In this document: one piece after another, positions 4,768 to 62,394 of the stretch
Numbering within the stretch: position 1 is the stretch's first letter
How the letters are laid out: each line of letters starts with the position of its first letter
Source: Polytrichum commune
Lineage: Eukaryota; Streptophyta; Polytrichopsida; Polytrichales; Polytrichaceae
Reading direction: 5' to 3'
NCBI GenBank assembly: GCA_950295325.1
Contig: OX485806.1
Span: forward strand, 31,992,001 to 32,056,000
DNA: 64,000 bases
Translations under genes and position numbers: made by a program
The notes under the pieces: generated by a model
What the model saw: the letters and a program-made list of their open reading frames with translations, nothing else
What the model was told of the DNA's origin: nothing
The model's database searches: none

Positions 4768-5244
4768 GGGCCCACGTCACACACGAGACTGAGGGCCCGT
4801 GACCATTGCGCTCCAAGCACGCTCATTGGTGGAAAAGGGGGAGCCGGTCCAAGTTCGCTGCACACTATGCTTGAGGGACCATGGGGGTAAGGGAATGCAA
4901 GATGCACGTAAAGTCTACGTGGCATCAAATGGGTCATGTTTTATGGTCACTTGGACAAAATTCATGCCGTCGCTTGGAAGTAGGCCTAGCACAAGACCGG
5001 GAGACCATGGCACTTCAAAATCTCACAACCGTTGATTTATTATGTTTATCGTATGTGAAAATCCTGCATGATTAGAAATTCATGGAAATAGCATTCGGTT
5101 GAGGGCCCGGCCACGTATGACTTCACACTACACTTGAGGGCATGTGACCACACTACATGATTTTGGAAGTGTCGTGGGGATAGCCTTTGGAAACTTCTTT
5201 GGGGCTCTCACAGTTTCATGGTCACGGCTCTTGGCTCTTGGCCC
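4768..5244 (-). mobile_element. Harbinger-type (Tourist-like) MITE, GGGCCACTTCACACA family, reverse copy
   Basis: The left end GGGCCCACGTCACACACGA and the right end GGCTCTTGGCCC match the reverse orientation of the family seen at 20127-20628. Internal landmarks agree, including AAAGTCTACGTGGCATC, GAGACCATGGCACT and CACACTACATGATTTTGGA. The right terminus has lost part of the inverted repeat, and no clear target duplication remains. It encodes nothing. Confidence 0.75.
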
Positions 5245-5257
5245 TGATTTAGATTTA

Positions 5258-5295
5258 GGGACACCTCACACATGAGCCAAGAGCCATGACATGTA
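5258..5295 (+). mobile_element. Fragment of a GGGCCACTTCACACA-family end
   Basis: The sequence GGGACACCTCACACATGAGCC and the following AAGAGCCATGACATG match the first roughly 38 bases of the MITE family. The match then stops and unrelated ACCGGTT-family sequence begins, so this looks like an element end broken by deletion or insertion. Confidence 0.55.
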
Positions 5296-5309
5296 ACATT
5301 GAGGCAGTG

Positions 5310-5862: not shown

Positions 5863-6360
5863 GGGCCACTTCACACACAAGCCAAGAGCCATGACCATGA
5901 AATTGTGAGAACCCATAAGAAAGTGTCCAAAGGTTGTCCCAACACACCTCCAAAATCATGTAGTGTGGTCATGGGCCCTCAAGTGTAGTGTGAAGTTGCA
6001 TGTGACCGGGCCCTCAGCCAAATGCTATTTCAATGATTTTTTTGCATGCAGGTCCTCACACATGATAAAATAGAATAAACCAACAGTTGTGAACGTTAGG
6101 AGTGCCATGGTCTCCCGATTTTGTGTTAAGCCTACCTCCAAGAGGTGGTTTTTGAAAACAGTCCAAGTGACCATGAAACATGATCCATTGGATGCCATGT
6201 AGGAGTCCATGTAGACTTTACATCCATCTTGCATTCACATACTCCGTTGGACCCTCAAGCGTAGTGTGAAGCGAACTTGGACTAGCTCCGCCTTTTCCAC
6301 CAATGAGAGTGCTTGAAGTGTAACGGTCACGGGCTCTCAATCTCATGTGTGAAGTGGCCC
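5863..6360 (+). mobile_element. Harbinger-type MITE, GGGCCACTTCACACA family
   Basis: The copy is 498 bp, starting GGGCCACTTCACACA and ending TGTGTGAAGTGGCCC. TAA precedes the left end (5860-5862); CGA follows the right end, so the duplication is imperfect. It is collinear with the copy at 20127-20628 along its whole length and is non-coding. Confidence 0.88.
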
Positions 6361-20126: not shown

Positions 20127-20628
20127 GGGCCACTTCACACATGAGCCAAGAGCCGTGACCATGAGATTGTGAGAGCCCAAAAGAAAGTGTCCAAAGGCCA
20201 TCCCAACACACCTCCAAAGTCATGTAGTGTGGTCACGGACCCTCGAGTGTTGTGTGAAGTCATATGTGACTGGACCCTCAACCAAATGCTATTTCAATGA
20301 ATTTCTATTCATCATGGTCCTCACACATGATAAAATAGAATAAATCACGGTTGTGAGTGTTCGGAGTGCCATGGTCTCATGGTCTTGTGGTAGGCCTACC
20401 TCCAAGAGGTGATTTTTGGAAATAGTCCAAGTGATCATGAAACATGATCCATTCGATGCCATGTAGGAATCCATGTAGACTTTACATCCATCTTGCATTC
20501 ACATACTTTGTTGGTCCCTCAAGCGTAGTGTGAAGCGAACTTGGACCGGCTCCGCCTTTTCCACCAATGAGAGTGCTTGAAGTGTAATGGTCATGGGCTC
20601 TCAGTACGTCCCGTTTGTGAAGTGGCCC
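20127..20628 (+). mobile_element. Harbinger-type MITE, GGGCCACTTCACACA family (502 bp), best-preserved copy
   Basis: It begins GGGCCACTTCACACATG and ends TTTGTGAAGTGGCCC. TTA flanks both ends exactly (20124-20126 and 20629-20631). It is non-coding, and it starts only 12 bases after the target duplication of the complete Harbinger element. It serves as the reference copy for the family. Confidence 0.93.
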
Positions 20629-37899: not shown

Positions 37900-38396
37900 G
37901 GGCCACTTGACACATGTGCCAAGAGCCATGACCATGAAATTGTGAGAGCCCATAAGAAAGTGTCCAAAGGCTATCGCAACACACCTCCAAAATCATGTAG
38001 TGTGGTCACGGATCCTCAAGTGTAGTGTGAAGTCATATGTGACCGGTCCCTCAACCAAATGCTATTTCAACGAGTTTCTATTCATGCGGGTCGTCACCCA
38101 TGATAAAATAGAATTAACCAACGGTTGTGAGCATTTGGAGTGCCATGGTCTCCTGGTTTTGTGTTAGGCCTACATCCAAGAAGTGGTTTTTGAAAATAGT
38201 CCAAGTGACCATGAAGCATGATCCATTCGATGCCATGTAGGAATCCATGTAGACTTTGCATCCATCTTGCAATCACATACTGCTTTGGTCCCTCAAGCGT
38301 AGTGTGAAGCGAACTTGGACCGGCTCCGCCTTTTCCACCAATGAGAGTGCTTGAAGTGTAATGGTCACGGGCTCTCAGTCTCGTGTGTGAAGTGGC
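37900..38396 (+). mobile_element. Harbinger-type MITE, GGGCCACTTCACACA family
   Basis: The left end is GGGCCACTTGACACATG and the right end GTGTGTGAAGTGGCT, with the last bases degraded. It is collinear with the copy at 20127-20628 (for example GTGTGGTCACGGATCCTCAA and GACCGGCTCCGCCTTTTCCA). No clear target duplication remains. Confidence 0.85.
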
Positions 38397-40477
38397 TGTA
38401 GGTTGCGAAAATGGGGTGGTGGTCGGGAATGGGTTGGCTGCCTTGGTACCATAATGAAGGGCCATGTGGCATCAAATAACAAGCATACCACAAAAGGCTA
38501 CCCTAAGCCTTATAACAATGTATTTATGGCTCACTTGCTTTGCAGCTCTAACCAAATTAATACACCGAGATTGGCCTAAACACTACATTAAATATTATAG
38601 ATTGTTCACCAATTCTATTTGACTCACTCAATACTAATTGTAAACCGCCCATGTAGTGTCACTAACACTAAAATGTAGACCTACCATTAAGGTAGAGGGT
38701 GCTTAAACCAACACTATAAGCTATTGCACATACATATGGTTACATGGTTGATATAAAAAATCATATTAGCCTTTGTTCTAAACATAGGTATAAAGAAAAA
38801 AAAATTAGCCTCAATTAGATATTTGATGAATATTCAAAGTTAGGAACCACTAGCTTCCTTAAACCATTATATAGGCCATGTGTATGACGACCTTGGATAT
38901 GATGAGGACCTCCACCTTCATTGCCTAGAACCAACACAACATAGTTGGGTACTATACCCAAGCTAGATCAAGGCCCTACTAGTAATGGTGAACAAAGCCA
39001 CATGGCCACCTCCATGATCCCACCTACTTCGCTTGCAAAACCATCACCTTGCATCTTGGGTACCAACCCCCTTTGTGCTTTGTGGGCCTACCTCGGTGAC
39101 TTTGTGAATAGAATGGTTGTAACCCCCCCCCCCCCTTGCAGTGTATAGAATGGCTAGAATAGGCATTGACAAGCCACCCTAGACCCACCTTGAACCAACC
39201 TGAGATATAGTGGAGCCCATTACCTACCCTACATGGAGGTAGTGGAGGTCGCTATGAGATGGCGCCACTCTGTGGGTCCATACACTCCTACACCATGGGG
39301 AACACTTCAAGGTAGTAGAGTGTTGGTGATTGAGAGGCGTTTATAAGTGTTGGTTTTAGCACCCTCTACCTTATTTGTCATTCCTTGTAGATTTGTTTAG
39401 GCATTATAGATTTACGATGTTGCAATTATTGTCACTTACTAAATGATTTTTCATCCAAAATGTTTTATTAAATAATTGTTAGGATGTAGAATATACCAAA
39501 CGTTGTTTCAAAAATTGGCATTTGGGCGAACTGAAAGTAAGTTGGGATGACAATACTTGTATACTTATTCATAAGAAACGTCACTAGAAAGTTAATAGAA
39601 TGACATAAAATACCATATGACACTAAACACAATATTTATTGTAGCATGACTTGGTGAACACAAACTTACCATAACATATCACTTTACACTCAACACATGT
39701 AAATGGGATCATGTCATAATGACTGCCCGTGTCAAGTAGGAAGTGTGTTATGAGCACCATAATCCTAATAGTGCATAATGTCACATTTGGTTTCAACATT
39801 TCAAGATGCCTACCACTTTAAGATTTGAAGTAGGTTTAGTACCCAGTTGTCACAACCCAACCAACGGTCACGGTGACGAAGGTTTTAAGCCTCCGACAAC
39901 TACACCAATTATTGTATTTATAGTCACATGGTATTTTATGTCGATGTGATAACTTTTATGGTGACACTTTGTACGAACAATTTATTGTCATGGATGGTGG
40001 ATGAAAACTTTAAGTTCATCCATTGGCCACAACCATACTACTTTGTCACCGGCTCTTCTATGGGTTGTGCCTCCACCCTCACGACTCCTCATGTGCTTGA
40101 GAGTTTGCTTGATGCGATGATTTGGTATAATTTTGCATCCGAACAAATATATGACGAAATATTGTCATGGATGATTTGGATGAAAGGTCACTTAGTAACT
40201 GACACCAATGGCAACGCTTTGAATCTATTATTCCCAATTTTAATTTTTTTACAAAGAATGACAAACAATGTTTTGCTAACATTTAGTGTTCACGACACTA
40301 CACCCCGGGTTTACAATTAGTATTGGCCAAGACAATTAGAATGGGTCACACGAAATACAACGTTTAGTGTACCACTTCCCACTGCACTATCAAAACCAAG
40401 ATCAAGTCTTTTAAGGATGGGTAAAAAATTCAACAAAAAGTCATAGTCTCCAGCTTTTGGTTTTGTGGTTTGTGGTT
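38397..40477. other. Intergenic stretch, no gene recognised
   Basis: A plus-strand frame of 130 codons (39928-40320) has no recognisable domain, and its DNA contains a short internal repeat (TGTCATGGATG). A C run lies at about 39123-39135. Confidence 0.45.
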
Positions 40478-59226: not shown

Positions 59227-59422
59227 GGGCCACGTCACACACAAGGCTGAAGGCCCATGACCACGGCAAATGAAGAGCTCTCATTGGTCGAAAATGCGGG
59301 GACCGTCCAAGTTGACTTCACACTAGGAGGTGGAGGCCTAAAGGACCAAAGAAAAGTTCGTGGATGAAAAGTCTACATGGAGTCCTATATGGCAGGCAGT
59401 GGATAAGGGTGTATGGTTTGCC

Positions 59423-59471
59423 GGAATTTGCGTCAGGCCCACCTCCAAGAGGTAGGCCTGACGCAAATTCC
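59423..59471. repeat. 49-base near-perfect palindrome
   Basis: GGAATTTGCGTCAGGCC and its inverse GGCCTGACGCAAATTCC flank ACCTC-CAA-GAGGT. It sits in the left subterminal region of the decayed Harbinger element. The other family copies have only the central ACCTCCAAGAGGT part. Confidence 0.85.
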
Positions 59472-59799
59472 GACAGACCATGGCAGTGAAGCAGTTGTAA
59501 ATGGTTGTCATGATTATTTTATTTATTTTTCTTCCAATAGTAACTTTTCCAAGACATAGTTGTTAAAATGAGGCATATGGTTGTTTCTCCCACATACCCA
59601 GAAGTCGAAGTAGTTAGAGTTTGTTGTAAATGCGATTGAAGTAGACAAATTTTTTTGACAAATTTTTTTTCTTCTATGATAAGATTTTCGCAAGATGTGA
59701 GTGGATCCGAAACCCAACAATGGAGCCAAAATTCTCCTTTGGATGTCGTGGAGTCAACCACAATTTGGATTGCACAGACCCTCATTAGGAAGTAGAAAT

Positions 59800-60960
59800 T
59801 TCAACAATTTTCAATTGTTTGCTGATGAAGATGTAGAGTTAATTGGTACATAAATACCGCAAAATATAAAGAGCAGTAGAGATGTGAGCATTAGAGGAGA
59901 AGCAGAAGATATTTCTAGGAAAGATGGTGATATTGACAAGAAGAAGAGAGGTAGGGCAGTAGCTACAAAATCAAAAGAAACACAAAAAAATAAAAAAATA
60001 AAAAAATAAAAATGAAGTGGATTTGGGAGATTCGGAAGGTGAAGGAGAGGCTCCAATTAAATGGCGAGACTATGAGATTTAAATTCTCATAGCCATTCGC
60101 AGTGAGATGGAAGAGGAATTCGCCAAATCTGCAAGAAAACAAGGTATGTATTTGTATATTAGATTGATTGTTATTAATTTCAAAAGCATAAATGAAATGA
60201 AAGTATAAAAATTCAGATACAGATTGGGCCAATTGGGCCTTTTTGAAGGCCTTCGCCTGTGCCGCCTACCCCGGGCCTCTCTTTCCCCCATTGAGGATTT
60301 AGCCGAATCGGGGCACTGGACTTCGAACTTGAGACCTCTTCGCTATGGGTGAGGAACCTTAGTAGGTGGTATGGACTTACTTGTCCCTCTCTTCTAGTTG
60401 GTAGAGTTATTAGCATATTGTATTTATTTCTATTACATTGTATTCTACTGTATTCCATTATACTGACTTCTATTGTTGTTGTAATTTGGAATATGAATGA
60501 ATATTTAGATTAAACTACATGCTCGTATGGTATCCACTCTGCGTAATTTTGGATGAACATAGTTAGCATGTAAGAAGAAATACAAGGTCTTGCTTATAGA
60601 ATACAAAAATGATAAATATGCAAATGAAATTTCAAGACATGATAGACAAGAGTGTCAGTACTATGAGGAGATGGACATGTAGAATGGACAGCGTGCAAGT
60701 ATGGTTAATCAGATGTCAACAAATGCTCAAGAGGATGGTGACCATCACTGTATGCACACCACACAACAAAATTCACCTGCAAGCGCTACAAATGACAAAA
60801 AGAAAAAAATTAAGACAAAATGGAAGGATTTCCAAAACAGATAGTTAATAATTCTTCAAATTTGATTGCATCTTTTCAGGCAATAACAGATTTACTAAAA
60901 ATAATGGATGCTCATATGACAGCCTTAATACAGAATTTATAGTTAGAGGCTCATATCAGA
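59800..60960 (+). pseudogene. Harbinger ORF1 (Myb/SANT-like) pseudogene
   Basis: Plus-strand fragments read KWRDYEI-ILIAIRSEMEEEFAKSARKQ (60050-60145), a Myb/SANT-like block, then after about 400 bases CKKKYKVLLIEYKNDKYANE and ECQYYEEMDMWNGQRAS (60570-60710). A GTATGT donor follows SARKQ, so the gap may be an intron. Stops and frameshifts interrupt the frame (for example before ILIAIRSEM). The gap holds a SINE-like insertion. ORF1 of this superfamily partners the transposase; this copy cannot. Confidence 0.7.
60205..60400 (-). mobile_element. SINE-like insertion within the decayed Harbinger element
   Basis: The minus strand reads GGTTCCTCACCCATAGCGAA, GAGGTCTCAAGTTCGAAGTC, CCAATGGGGGAAAGAGAGGCC-like and GGGGTAGGCGGCACAGG. 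The AAGTTCGAAGTCC block resembles a pol III B box. The start and end are not sharp, and it is a different family from the copy at 40478. Confidence 0.45.
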
Positions 60961-62130
60961 ATTTATATCCATATCTTGAAATTCCAGGTTTGAATTTTTT
61001 TGAAGTTTGATTCGCCATAAAGATTTAACTATTATTATATATATATTTGTGGCTTCTATCAATAAATCTTCATCTTTTTTATTTTCTTTTATCAAGAAAA
61101 TTTCAGTATCTTTATCAACTAGTTCTGCTAATCTTGTATTATTTTCTGTGATACTAATATTTCTGATCTCACCTATAGATGTTAATTCAGCCCTCATTTC
61201 TTGTCATTTTCTCAATGATCTATTCTCTATACGTCTACTCAATTTTCTTTCAGCTTATTCTATCCATTCTATATCAAATTTTTTTTTTTCAATAGTACAC
61301 ATAATGTATAGTACAATACATATAGCTACTATATCAGTTATATGCCATAATGGTATATTGGATCTTCTCATAATAATTCTCCATCTTCCTTTCAAGATTC
61401 TGAAAGCACGTTCTACACACATGCGGGTGAAATTTTGAATAAAATTCCAATTTGTTTTTTAACATTCTAATTTTTCTGCACACCCTTTAAATGGACTGTA
61501 AATCCATGGTCGCATTGGATATGCGCAATCTTCAATCAGCTTGGAAAGTAAGAATTTACCTTTGATGCAATTTCTTTCAACTTTTGTCAATTGAAACAAT
61601 GTCCAATCATACACACTTTCTGCCCATCCAAATTCGTAATCCCAAAACATACATTTCGTATCTACTATAAAGCCGAATGAAATGATTTTCTGCAATAATA
61701 ATCTTCTTCCCCAATTACAGGTCCAAGAATTGGAATGTGAAACCCATCGATTGCTCCTAAAATGTGAGGAATTCCATGAAGAGCCTCAAAATTTGGGCTA
61801 AAATCCTAAATGGACCTAACATCTCTTAAATAACCTTGAATGTATTGTGACATACACGAGTTCTTCGTTTAAACATTTTTTCCGTGAATGAACCCAATAA
61901 CAACCTATCCGTAAACCTTAAATTTCTCTCAAATGCCCATACACTACGATCGCTCATCTTCATACCCTTAAAGCAAATGCTCAAAATTAGGGCATTTTCC
62001 CATTCTCCATTGAGTGCCAATGCTTGCATATCAAACACATGTTGCACAATCTTGTACAAACACCAATATAAAGCTAATGCCACAAGAATCCTTCTTCTTC
62101 TCTCAATGTGAACCATCATGCTCTCTTTCC
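60943..62130 (-). pseudogene. Harbinger transposase pseudogene (second lineage)
   Basis: Minus-strand blocks in order are MMVHIERRRRILVALALYWC (62119 downward), GKWMKMSDRSVWAF-like, LLLGSFTEKMFKRRTRVC, then across a frameshift GIPHILGAIDG (the first Asp, near 61760), GPVIGEEDYYCRKSFHSAL, VDTKCMFWDYEFGWAESVYD, then LIEDCAYPMRPWIYSPFKG (the second Asp) and CVERAFRILKGRWRIIMRRS (the Glu). About 70 residues between the N-terminal and first-Asp blocks are missing, and several stops and frameshifts occur. The order and motifs are those of a HARBI1/ALP1-type DDE transposase, a different lineage from the intact one at 18544. Confidence 0.82.
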
Positions 62131-62394
62131 TTCCTCACCGATGTAAAACTCGAAAAAAAGAGTGAGAAAAAAAATAATGAAGATATGTAACTGAGGTAGG
62201 GCTGCCCCACTTTTCTCACTAATAAAATATGCAACGGTCCCTCAGCATGGTCCATTCTCACTTCACACTATGTTTGAGGACCCGACCCCACACAAAGTGG
62301 GTAGTCCTTCACCCTTGGTATGGCCTTTGGATGATAGTCAAGGGTCCTCATGATTCCATGGTCATGGCCCTTGGTTTGTGTGTGAAGTGGCCCT

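What the first reader, a model, noticed from the sequence alone, without database searches (positions are those of the whole stretch)
59227..62394. Decayed full-length Harbinger element is the parent type of a local MITE family
The 3168-bp element has the same termini (GGGCCACTTCACACA type) and the same subterminal blocks as the roughly 500-bp MITEs at 4768, 5863, 20127 and 37900. Unlike them it contains a Myb-like ORF1 and a transposase pseudogene. A parent and its deletion derivatives side by side let one define which sequences the MITEs kept: about 250-300 bp at one end and about 150-200 bp at the other.
Basis: partly seen in the sequence, partly recalled or inferred. Interest (0 to 1): 0.8.

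Follow-up and report, generated by a model that had tools for sequence, protein, structure and literature searches.

The report
Decayed jumping gene, cousin of MITEs
The window holds a dead, full-length Harbinger DNA transposon whose ends resemble many short non-coding copies in the same genome, but it is a cousin of those copies rather than the type they were cut down from; this is ordinary transposon biology, with a possibly new detail in a hairpin that several related families keep near one end.

Summary
In detail: 59227-62393 (3167 bp) is a decayed PIF/Harbinger copy with a Myb-type ORF1 relic and a transposase pseudogene. The four MITEs share its termini and, collinearly, about 258-300 bp of the left and 139-144 bp of the right end. 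'Parent type' does not hold. The MITE consensus is 71% identical to this copy's left end and at best 75% to any of 31 coding or ORF1-bearing left ends compared, short stretches apart, though sampled MITE copies are only 6-7% from their consensus. In a 46-row tree the MITEs branch outside all sampled coding copies (94/87); grouping them with this copy or its subfamily is rejected (p 0.004, 0.007), with group B or L147 not. A second MITE family of about 590 bp, not in the window, is nearer (up to 91% and 88% to group B). No coding parent was found, but searches score only top candidates. Conservation between MITE and coding ends is blockwise. Side result: a strong hairpin 165-255 bp from the left end is kept in several Harbinger families.

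The parts
59227..62393 (+). degenerate full-length PIF/Harbinger element, subfamily 'A' (3167 bp)
   Evidence: nearest relatives L001-L006 (A clade 100/99)
59227..59244 (+). left TIR (one mismatch to GGGCCACTTCACACACAA)
62376..62393 (-). right TIR
59227..59485 (+). left subterminal block shared with the 499-bp MITEs (profile match runs on weakly to 59582)
59412..59482 (+). left hairpin, 34-bp imperfect palindrome with 3-nt loop; strongest fold of the element
59676..60151 (+). ORF1 exon 1 relic (Myb/SANT-like, first half)
60497..60939 (+). ORF1 exon 2 relic (Myb/SANT-like, second half, and C-terminal part)
   Evidence: the domain in relatives:
60946..62255 (-). DDE transposase pseudogene (residues 151-225 without match, frame changes, stops)
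   Evidence: PF13359 match of a fragment; unbroken frames of relatives
62250..62393 (+). right subterminal block shared with the 499-bp MITEs; its inner limit lies within 5 bp of the transposase start codon
4769..5240 (+). 499-bp-family MITE, right TIR lost
5258..5301 (-). 44-bp fragment of a right end of the same MITE family
5863..6360 (-). 499-bp-family MITE, complete
20127..20628 (-). 499-bp-family MITE, complete, TTA on both sides
37900..38398 (-). 499-bp-family MITE, complete

Best explanation
The element is an inactive copy of one subfamily (A) of a PIF/Harbinger family with TIR GGGCCACTTCACACA. The window's MITEs descend from a different, long-separated lineage with the same kind of ends, whose coding copy was not found. 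Shown: shared TIR, collinear subterminal homology, one MITE structure in the copies sampled, separate branching from this copy's subfamily, blockwise conservation. Inferred: the MITEs were copied by the usual two-protein Harbinger system (DDE transposase plus Myb-like ORF1) supplied in trans by coding relatives, which recognise the TIR and conserved subterminal blocks; the founder arose by an internal deletion that removed all coding sequence and kept left non-coding DNA and right non-coding DNA up to about the transposase start codon.
For: Profile homology of both ends in order and orientation in all 20 full-length copies. MITE copies homogeneous: 34 of 40 sampled exact-end copies run end to end at 474-515 bp, mean 6.2% from consensus. 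Consensus only 71% (this copy) to 73.7-75.2% (group B) identical on the left. MITEs outside all sampled coding copies and MITE590, 94/87; AU p 0.004 (with this copy), 0.007 (with A). Of 18 further transposase loci, 16 at 47-65% identity have other TIRs and 2 (L034, L035, 75-77%) the same TIR; of 20 further right ends, 17 have other TIRs, 1 none found, 2 the same TIR. Blockwise conservation exceeds shuffles (left 4, right 0 of 10000) and simulated even divergence (5 and 0 of 2000); the same columns tend to be kept in a family with other TIRs (1 of 263 shifts as high). Right homology covers the last 139 bp in six of seven group B copies, and in L019 the transposase ATG lies 139 bp from the end. 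Coding copies with unbroken 514-547-aa transposase frames exist.
Against: The AU test does not reject MITE+group B (p 0.12) or MITE+L147 (p 0.13), and the first, smaller tree rejected none of the groupings tried. The bootstrap had not settled, and both trees use the left end alone. Recognition of MITE ends by group B proteins is not tested.
Confidence: 0.78

Rival explanations
1. One reading: the window element's own family is the direct parent, and MITEs are its internal deletion derivatives that diverged afterwards.
For: Same TIR, collinear ends, plausible extents. Not rejected in the smaller tree (p 0.095).
Against: Sampled MITE copies are 6-7% from their consensus while the consensus is about 25-31% (L002 34%) from the left ends of the 20 full-length coding copies; grouping with this copy or subfamily A is rejected; another MITE family (590 bp) shows what nearer derivatives look like (up to 91% and 88%).
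Confidence: 0.06
2. The MITE lineage has its own coding parent still in this genome, which the searches missed.
For: First looks score only the best candidates; gaps and withheld stretches exist. MITE+L147 is not rejected (p 0.13), and L147 matches the MITE at 84% over 62 bp.
Against: Transposase and ORF1 searches listed relatives down to 47% and 32% identity, and none of 31 left ends exceeded 75.3% over more than 100 columns. Eighteen of the 486 matches within two mismatches of the group B right end were read: 14 complete MITEs, 2 partial MITEs, 2 that leave the MITE after 71 and 106 bp with no transposase match in the 0.67 kb read.
Confidence: 0.22
3. Blockwise conservation reflects promoter elements of ORF1 and transposase in the coding ancestor, not sites used in transposition.
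For: The left block precedes ORF1; the right block ends at the transposase start codon. The long MITE stem may have been a coding lineage.
Against: The blocks include the TIR and a repeated CTTCACAC motif at both ends. The two functions are not exclusive.
Confidence: 0.25

Closest known systems
Ping / Pong / mPing of rice (PIF/Harbinger; PMC9921582, passages read; PMC2836001, search listing with start of abstract only)
   Same: Two-protein Harbinger elements with a MITE. [quoted passage not shown]
   Different: mPing as a deletion derivative of Ping is recalled, not taken from a call; here no such near-identical coding parent was found for the 499-bp family.
MtPH-A5 and MITRAV of Medicago truncatula (PMC2213677, passages read, including parts of the abstract)
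   Same: MITE and coding Harbinger thought to come from a recent common ancestor, transposase possibly acting in trans; abortive gap repair proposed for internal deletions.
   Different: A separate family in another genome; no sequence comparison was made here.
Stowaway MITEs and Osmar elements of rice (PMC3660474, passages read)
   Same: 'Orphan' MITEs without cognate coding element, moved by related transposases.
   Different: Tc1/mariner-like with TA target, not Harbinger.

Membership tests
PIF/Harbinger superfamily (window element) | short TIRs and 3-bp TWA target duplication | tested here: met
   TIRs; 16 of 20 family copies with identical 3-bp duplication (a few TCA or TGA), this copy TAA/TGA
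PIF/Harbinger superfamily (window element) | DDE_Tnp_4 transposase | tested here: met
   PF13359 E 2.3e-22 in relative L019; this copy's fragment 6.3e-6, pseudogene
PIF/Harbinger superfamily (window element) | second ORF with Myb/SANT-like domain | tested here: met
   PF13837 39.2 bits, cut-off 27, on a predicted splice of exon 1 (L019) and exon 2 (L011); unspliced exon 2 alone 17.6 bits, below cut-off; relic in this copy
499-bp MITEs as deletion derivatives of the window element's subfamily | ends nearly identical to the parent beyond the TIR | tested here: not met
   71% over 262 columns left, 87% over 47 bp right
499-bp MITEs as deletion derivatives of the window element's subfamily | MITEs nested within or beside the parent's clade | tested here: not met
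   AU p 0.004 and 0.007 with 46 rows; not rejected with 33 rows (p 0.095 and 0.24)
499-bp MITEs as deletion derivatives of the window element's subfamily | collinear left and right segments with one junction shared by copies | tested here: met
   34 of 40 copies 474-515 bp; profile match of both ends
Tourist-like MITE (499-bp family) | short, TIRs, 3-bp TWA/TNA duplication, high copy number | tested here: met
   21 of 34 complete sampled copies with identical triplets; 645 end matches
Tourist-like MITE (499-bp family) | mobilised in trans by Harbinger proteins | not testable with these tools
   needs binding or excision assays

The most novel reading that the evidence does not exclude
A strong hairpin at a fixed place (about 165-255 bp from the left TIR) is a conserved structural part of several Harbinger families here, kept through sequence turnover: the F family has a sequence without detectable similarity that folds equally well at the same place. 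MITE founders in four groups kept the left end through it, so it may either be needed in cis or influence where gap repair aborts. The 499-bp MITE, whose hairpin is gone from its consensus, would be a natural test showing that it is dispensable for amplification once a MITE exists.
Probability: 0.25. Interest if true: 0.5.

Novelty: new member of a known kind. Interest (0 to 1): 0.3.

Why it matters
It corrects a tempting inference: a full-length transposon lying among MITEs with the same ends need not be their parent. It offers a footprint of the end sequences kept across a gap of about 25-31% between coding elements and an abundant MITE lineage, which can be tested as recognition sites. The hairpin, if general, bears on the open question of what fixes MITE breakpoints and why many MITE families lack a recognisable parent.

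Tried and rejected
Parent hunt by transposase: 18 loci and 20 right ends of the hits (84 scored candidates) were read, besides the copies; of these 38 only L034, L035, L080 and L081 have the GGGCCACTTCACACA TIR. L080/L081, read further as L099/L100, resemble the other family copies; L099 has no left end in the 4.3 kb read. Parent hunt by ORF1 exon 2: 20 of 150 listed hits were read upstream; 9 have left ends matched by the MITE profile at 56 bits or more, 69-73% identical to the consensus except short stretches of L147 (84% over 62 bp, 86% over 29) and of the palindrome; 11 show none or only a weak match on the other strand.

L040/L121, a MITE right end followed by other DNA, was followed for 4.9 kb: no left end and no transposase match.

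'MITE breakpoint sits exactly at the hairpin foot': MITE590 left homology stops at element 253-256 (the last paired base is 256) in the main alignments of 19 of 20 copies, 238 in L002, but short further matches to element 269-310 in L002, L003 and L005 suggest a small gap there and a later true breakpoint, so I do not claim it. Hairpin covariation is weak: score 0.113 against 0.100 shuffled, reached by 2 of 500; pairs changed on both sides 8 against 7.0, reached by 192 of 500. Rfam miRNA matches on the hairpin (best mir-3836, 35.8 bits, E 3.4e-4) are far below gathering scores of 90-100. Solved-structure search of the transposase: best E 0.32, nothing usable.

Age order, weak: MITE copies are 6-7% from consensus (both samples picked for good matches, so biased low), between subfamily A (pairwise 9%, halved 4.6) and C (14%, halved 7.1).

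Full report
WHAT IS THERE. The element runs from 59227 to 62393 (3167 bp), with TIRs of the GGGCCACTTCACACACAA type and flanking triplets TAA/TGA. The genome search scored 40 of 3036 candidates and found many relatives. Twenty of these loci were fetched; with the window copy, 20 full-length copies have both ends placed, while L007 lacks a recognisable left TIR. I sorted them into A (this copy, L001-L006), B (L008-L012, L019, L020) and C (L013-L018). A is a supported clade (100/99); C is only the remainder. Mean pairwise identity is 0.908 in A, 0.968 in B and 0.858 among four of the six C copies; this copy is 0.839-0.846 identical to B. Of 20 copies printed, 16 have identical 3-bp duplications.

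GENES. Read against the 514-aa frame of L019, the transposase relic lies at window 60946-62255 on the minus strand, in four pieces and three frames, without residues 151-225, with at least five stops. Unbroken frames of 514-547 aa occur in L009, L010 and L019, with PF13359 at E 2.3e-22 in L019. ORF1 lies on the opposite strand, so the two genes converge. Its Myb/SANT domain is split by a predicted intron: exon 2 alone scores 17.6 bits; the predicted splice, joined from exon 1 of L019 and exon 2 of L011, scores 39.2 bits against a cut-off of 27. Both exons are broken in the window copy.

THE MITES. The family is very abundant: 645 matches with at most one mismatch to a 52-base right end, none in the reversed control. 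Of 40 copies taken from the 78 exact matches, 34 are complete at 474-515 bp, 21 of them with identical 3-bp duplications; the other 6 lack a recognisable second end in the 641 bases read. The consensus of the 34 is 499 bp and copies are on average 6.2% from it, or 6.9% without the 52 bases used for selection; the selection makes this a low estimate. The common structure means that the breakpoints are the same by descent in the copies sampled.

PARENT OR COUSIN. The MITE profile matches both ends of all 20 full-length copies in order, with 127.7 bits for this copy's left end and 136.5-148.5 for group B. By BLAST the left similarity runs to element 255-267 in 17 of 20 copies, to 241 in L002 and to 191-192 in L005 and L014; by profile it runs on weakly to 290-356 in some. 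By profile the right part covers 139-144 bp in most copies and exactly the last 139 bp in six of seven group B copies; in L019 the transposase ATG lies 139 bp from the end. But identity is low: MITE consensus against this copy 71.0% left (262 columns) and 87% over 47 bp right; against group B 73.7-75.2% left and 92-96% over 51 bp right; the lowest left value is 66% (L002). A first tree of left ends (33 rows) gave the MITEs a stem of 0.28 changes per site, and AU tests rejected no grouping tried (MITE+this copy 0.095, +A 0.24, +B 0.47). With 46 rows the MITEs fall outside all sampled coding copies and the 590-bp MITEs (94/87). MITE+this copy (p 0.004) and MITE+A (p 0.007) are rejected; MITE+B (0.12) and MITE+L147 (0.13) are not. 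The bootstrap had not settled, and L147 and L149 are long branches. Both trees use the left end only.

LOOKING FOR THE TRUE PARENT. A transposase search scored 84 of 2369 candidates. Of 18 loci read, 7 have a GGCCCTCTTTACACTAG-type TIR (D), 8 a GGGGCGGTTTACACTATGG type (E), 1 a GGGCCGGTTCACACTATGG type (F) and 2 the GGGCCACTTCACACA type. Of 20 further right ends, 2 have that last type, 17 others, and 1 none found. An ORF1 search scored 150 of 690 candidates; 20 upstream stretches were read, 9 with matching left ends. In all, 31 left ends of coding or ORF1-bearing copies were compared with the MITE consensus: 20, 9, L035 and L100. The best are 75.2% over 270 columns (L009, L020) and 75.3% over 166 (L100); only short stretches go higher, such as 84% over 62 bp in L147. 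No parent was found.

A SECOND MITE FAMILY. At C7:3750559-3751159 lies a MITE of about 590 bp; the 40 candidates scored of 3149 are near full length. Its consensus, from 20 fetched copies, is 88.7-91.0% identical to group B over the left 256 bp and 86.8-88.4% over the right 189 bp, but 86% and 81% to this copy; copies are 6.7% from consensus. There are 513 matches with at most one mismatch to its right end. No copy was found in the window. Grouping it with A (p 0.0009) or B (p 0.006) is rejected too, so it also branches just outside the sampled coding copies. Exact matches to the group B right end number 6, all at the right ends of family copies listed; within two mismatches there are 486, of which 100 are listed.

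BLOCKS. MITE499 and group B ends agree in blocks, not evenly. Variance of identity in 15-column windows was reached by 4 (left) and 0 (right) of 10000 shuffles, and by 5 and 0 of 2000 simulated evenly diverged pairs realigned the same way. Blocks include the TIR, CTCTCATTGGT.GAAAAGGCGGAG, GTCCAAGTTC.CTTCACACTA, AAAGTCTACATGGA.TCCTACATGGCA and, on the right, ACTTCACACTA, ACGGCCTTTGGA and the last 50 bp. Left columns shared by MITE and a B copy overlap those shared by B and a D copy more than in all but 1 of 263 circular shifts. I read this as long constraint on ends, through protein recognition, promoter function, or both.

HAIRPIN. The left subterminal region of this copy folds into a 34-pair hairpin at 59412-59482 (about -57 kcal/mol, shuffles about -26). 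Over 22 elements scanned it is the strongest fold of the whole stretch in 13: 6 of 6 A/B/C copies, 6 of 7 D (for L033 and L037 the right end is not placed) and the one F. L021 (D) lost it by a deletion, and in the 8 E copies the fold there is weaker and not the strongest. The F left end has no significant similarity to the ABC copies (best E 0.83), MITE590 (0.085) or D (0.058), whereas the D hairpin matches ABC at about 1e-11. All 40 scored F copies of 1000 candidates show the palindrome at about 171-247. MITE590 keeps the hairpin (-66); the MITE499 consensus does not (-24, the shuffle level). F matches end at 273-279 in 13 of 40 copies, 12 of these with an opposite terminus close by, and at 327 in 11; 1 ends at 293 and 15 reach the query's end or its last base but one. 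Five D-like matches end at 314-316, four with an opposite terminus and three with a listed palindrome; two other D-like matches end at 204 and 134. Thus several MITE groups keep the left end through the hairpin. Queries began at the left end, which favours such copies. Covariation support is weak.

KNOWN OR NEW. Orphan MITEs moved by non-cognate elements are described (PMC3660474, passages), as are Harbinger MITEs thought to share ancestry with a coding element (PMC2213677, passages) and mobilisation of mPing by Pong (PMC9921582, passages). Five library searches showed me no paper with this family or the hairpin in what I saw (titles, abstract starts, passages of three papers); full texts of the rest were not read. 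The host was not identified; that it is a plant is inferred from the Plant_tran match and the genome layout.

Noticed in passing
59412-59482; L012, L015, L022, L023, L038 left ends: Strong hairpin 165-255 bp from the left TIR in A/B/C, D and F Harbinger families, without detectable sequence similarity in F; gone from the 499-bp MITE consensus.
   Followed up: partly
G000:C7:3750559-3751159 (inside L007) and L101-L120: A second MITE family of about 590 bp, nearer to the coding copies than the window's MITEs.
   Followed up: yes
G000:C2:55671321-55671707 and 11 similar F-type copies; C1:18455562-18456030 and three similar: Short F-type (about 387 bp) and D-like (about 450-470 bp) elements that also keep the left 273-316 bp.
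   Followed up: partly
5258-5301: 44-bp right-end fragment of the 499-bp MITE family next to the truncated MITE at 4769.
   Followed up: no
G000:C6:36818111-36819462; C3:30480358-30481668; C6:16500870-16501856: Clusters of 499-bp-family MITE matches lying head to head or abutting.
   Followed up: no
L001-L038: At least four TIR types among Harbinger transposases in this genome, sorting with transposase identity.
   Followed up: partly
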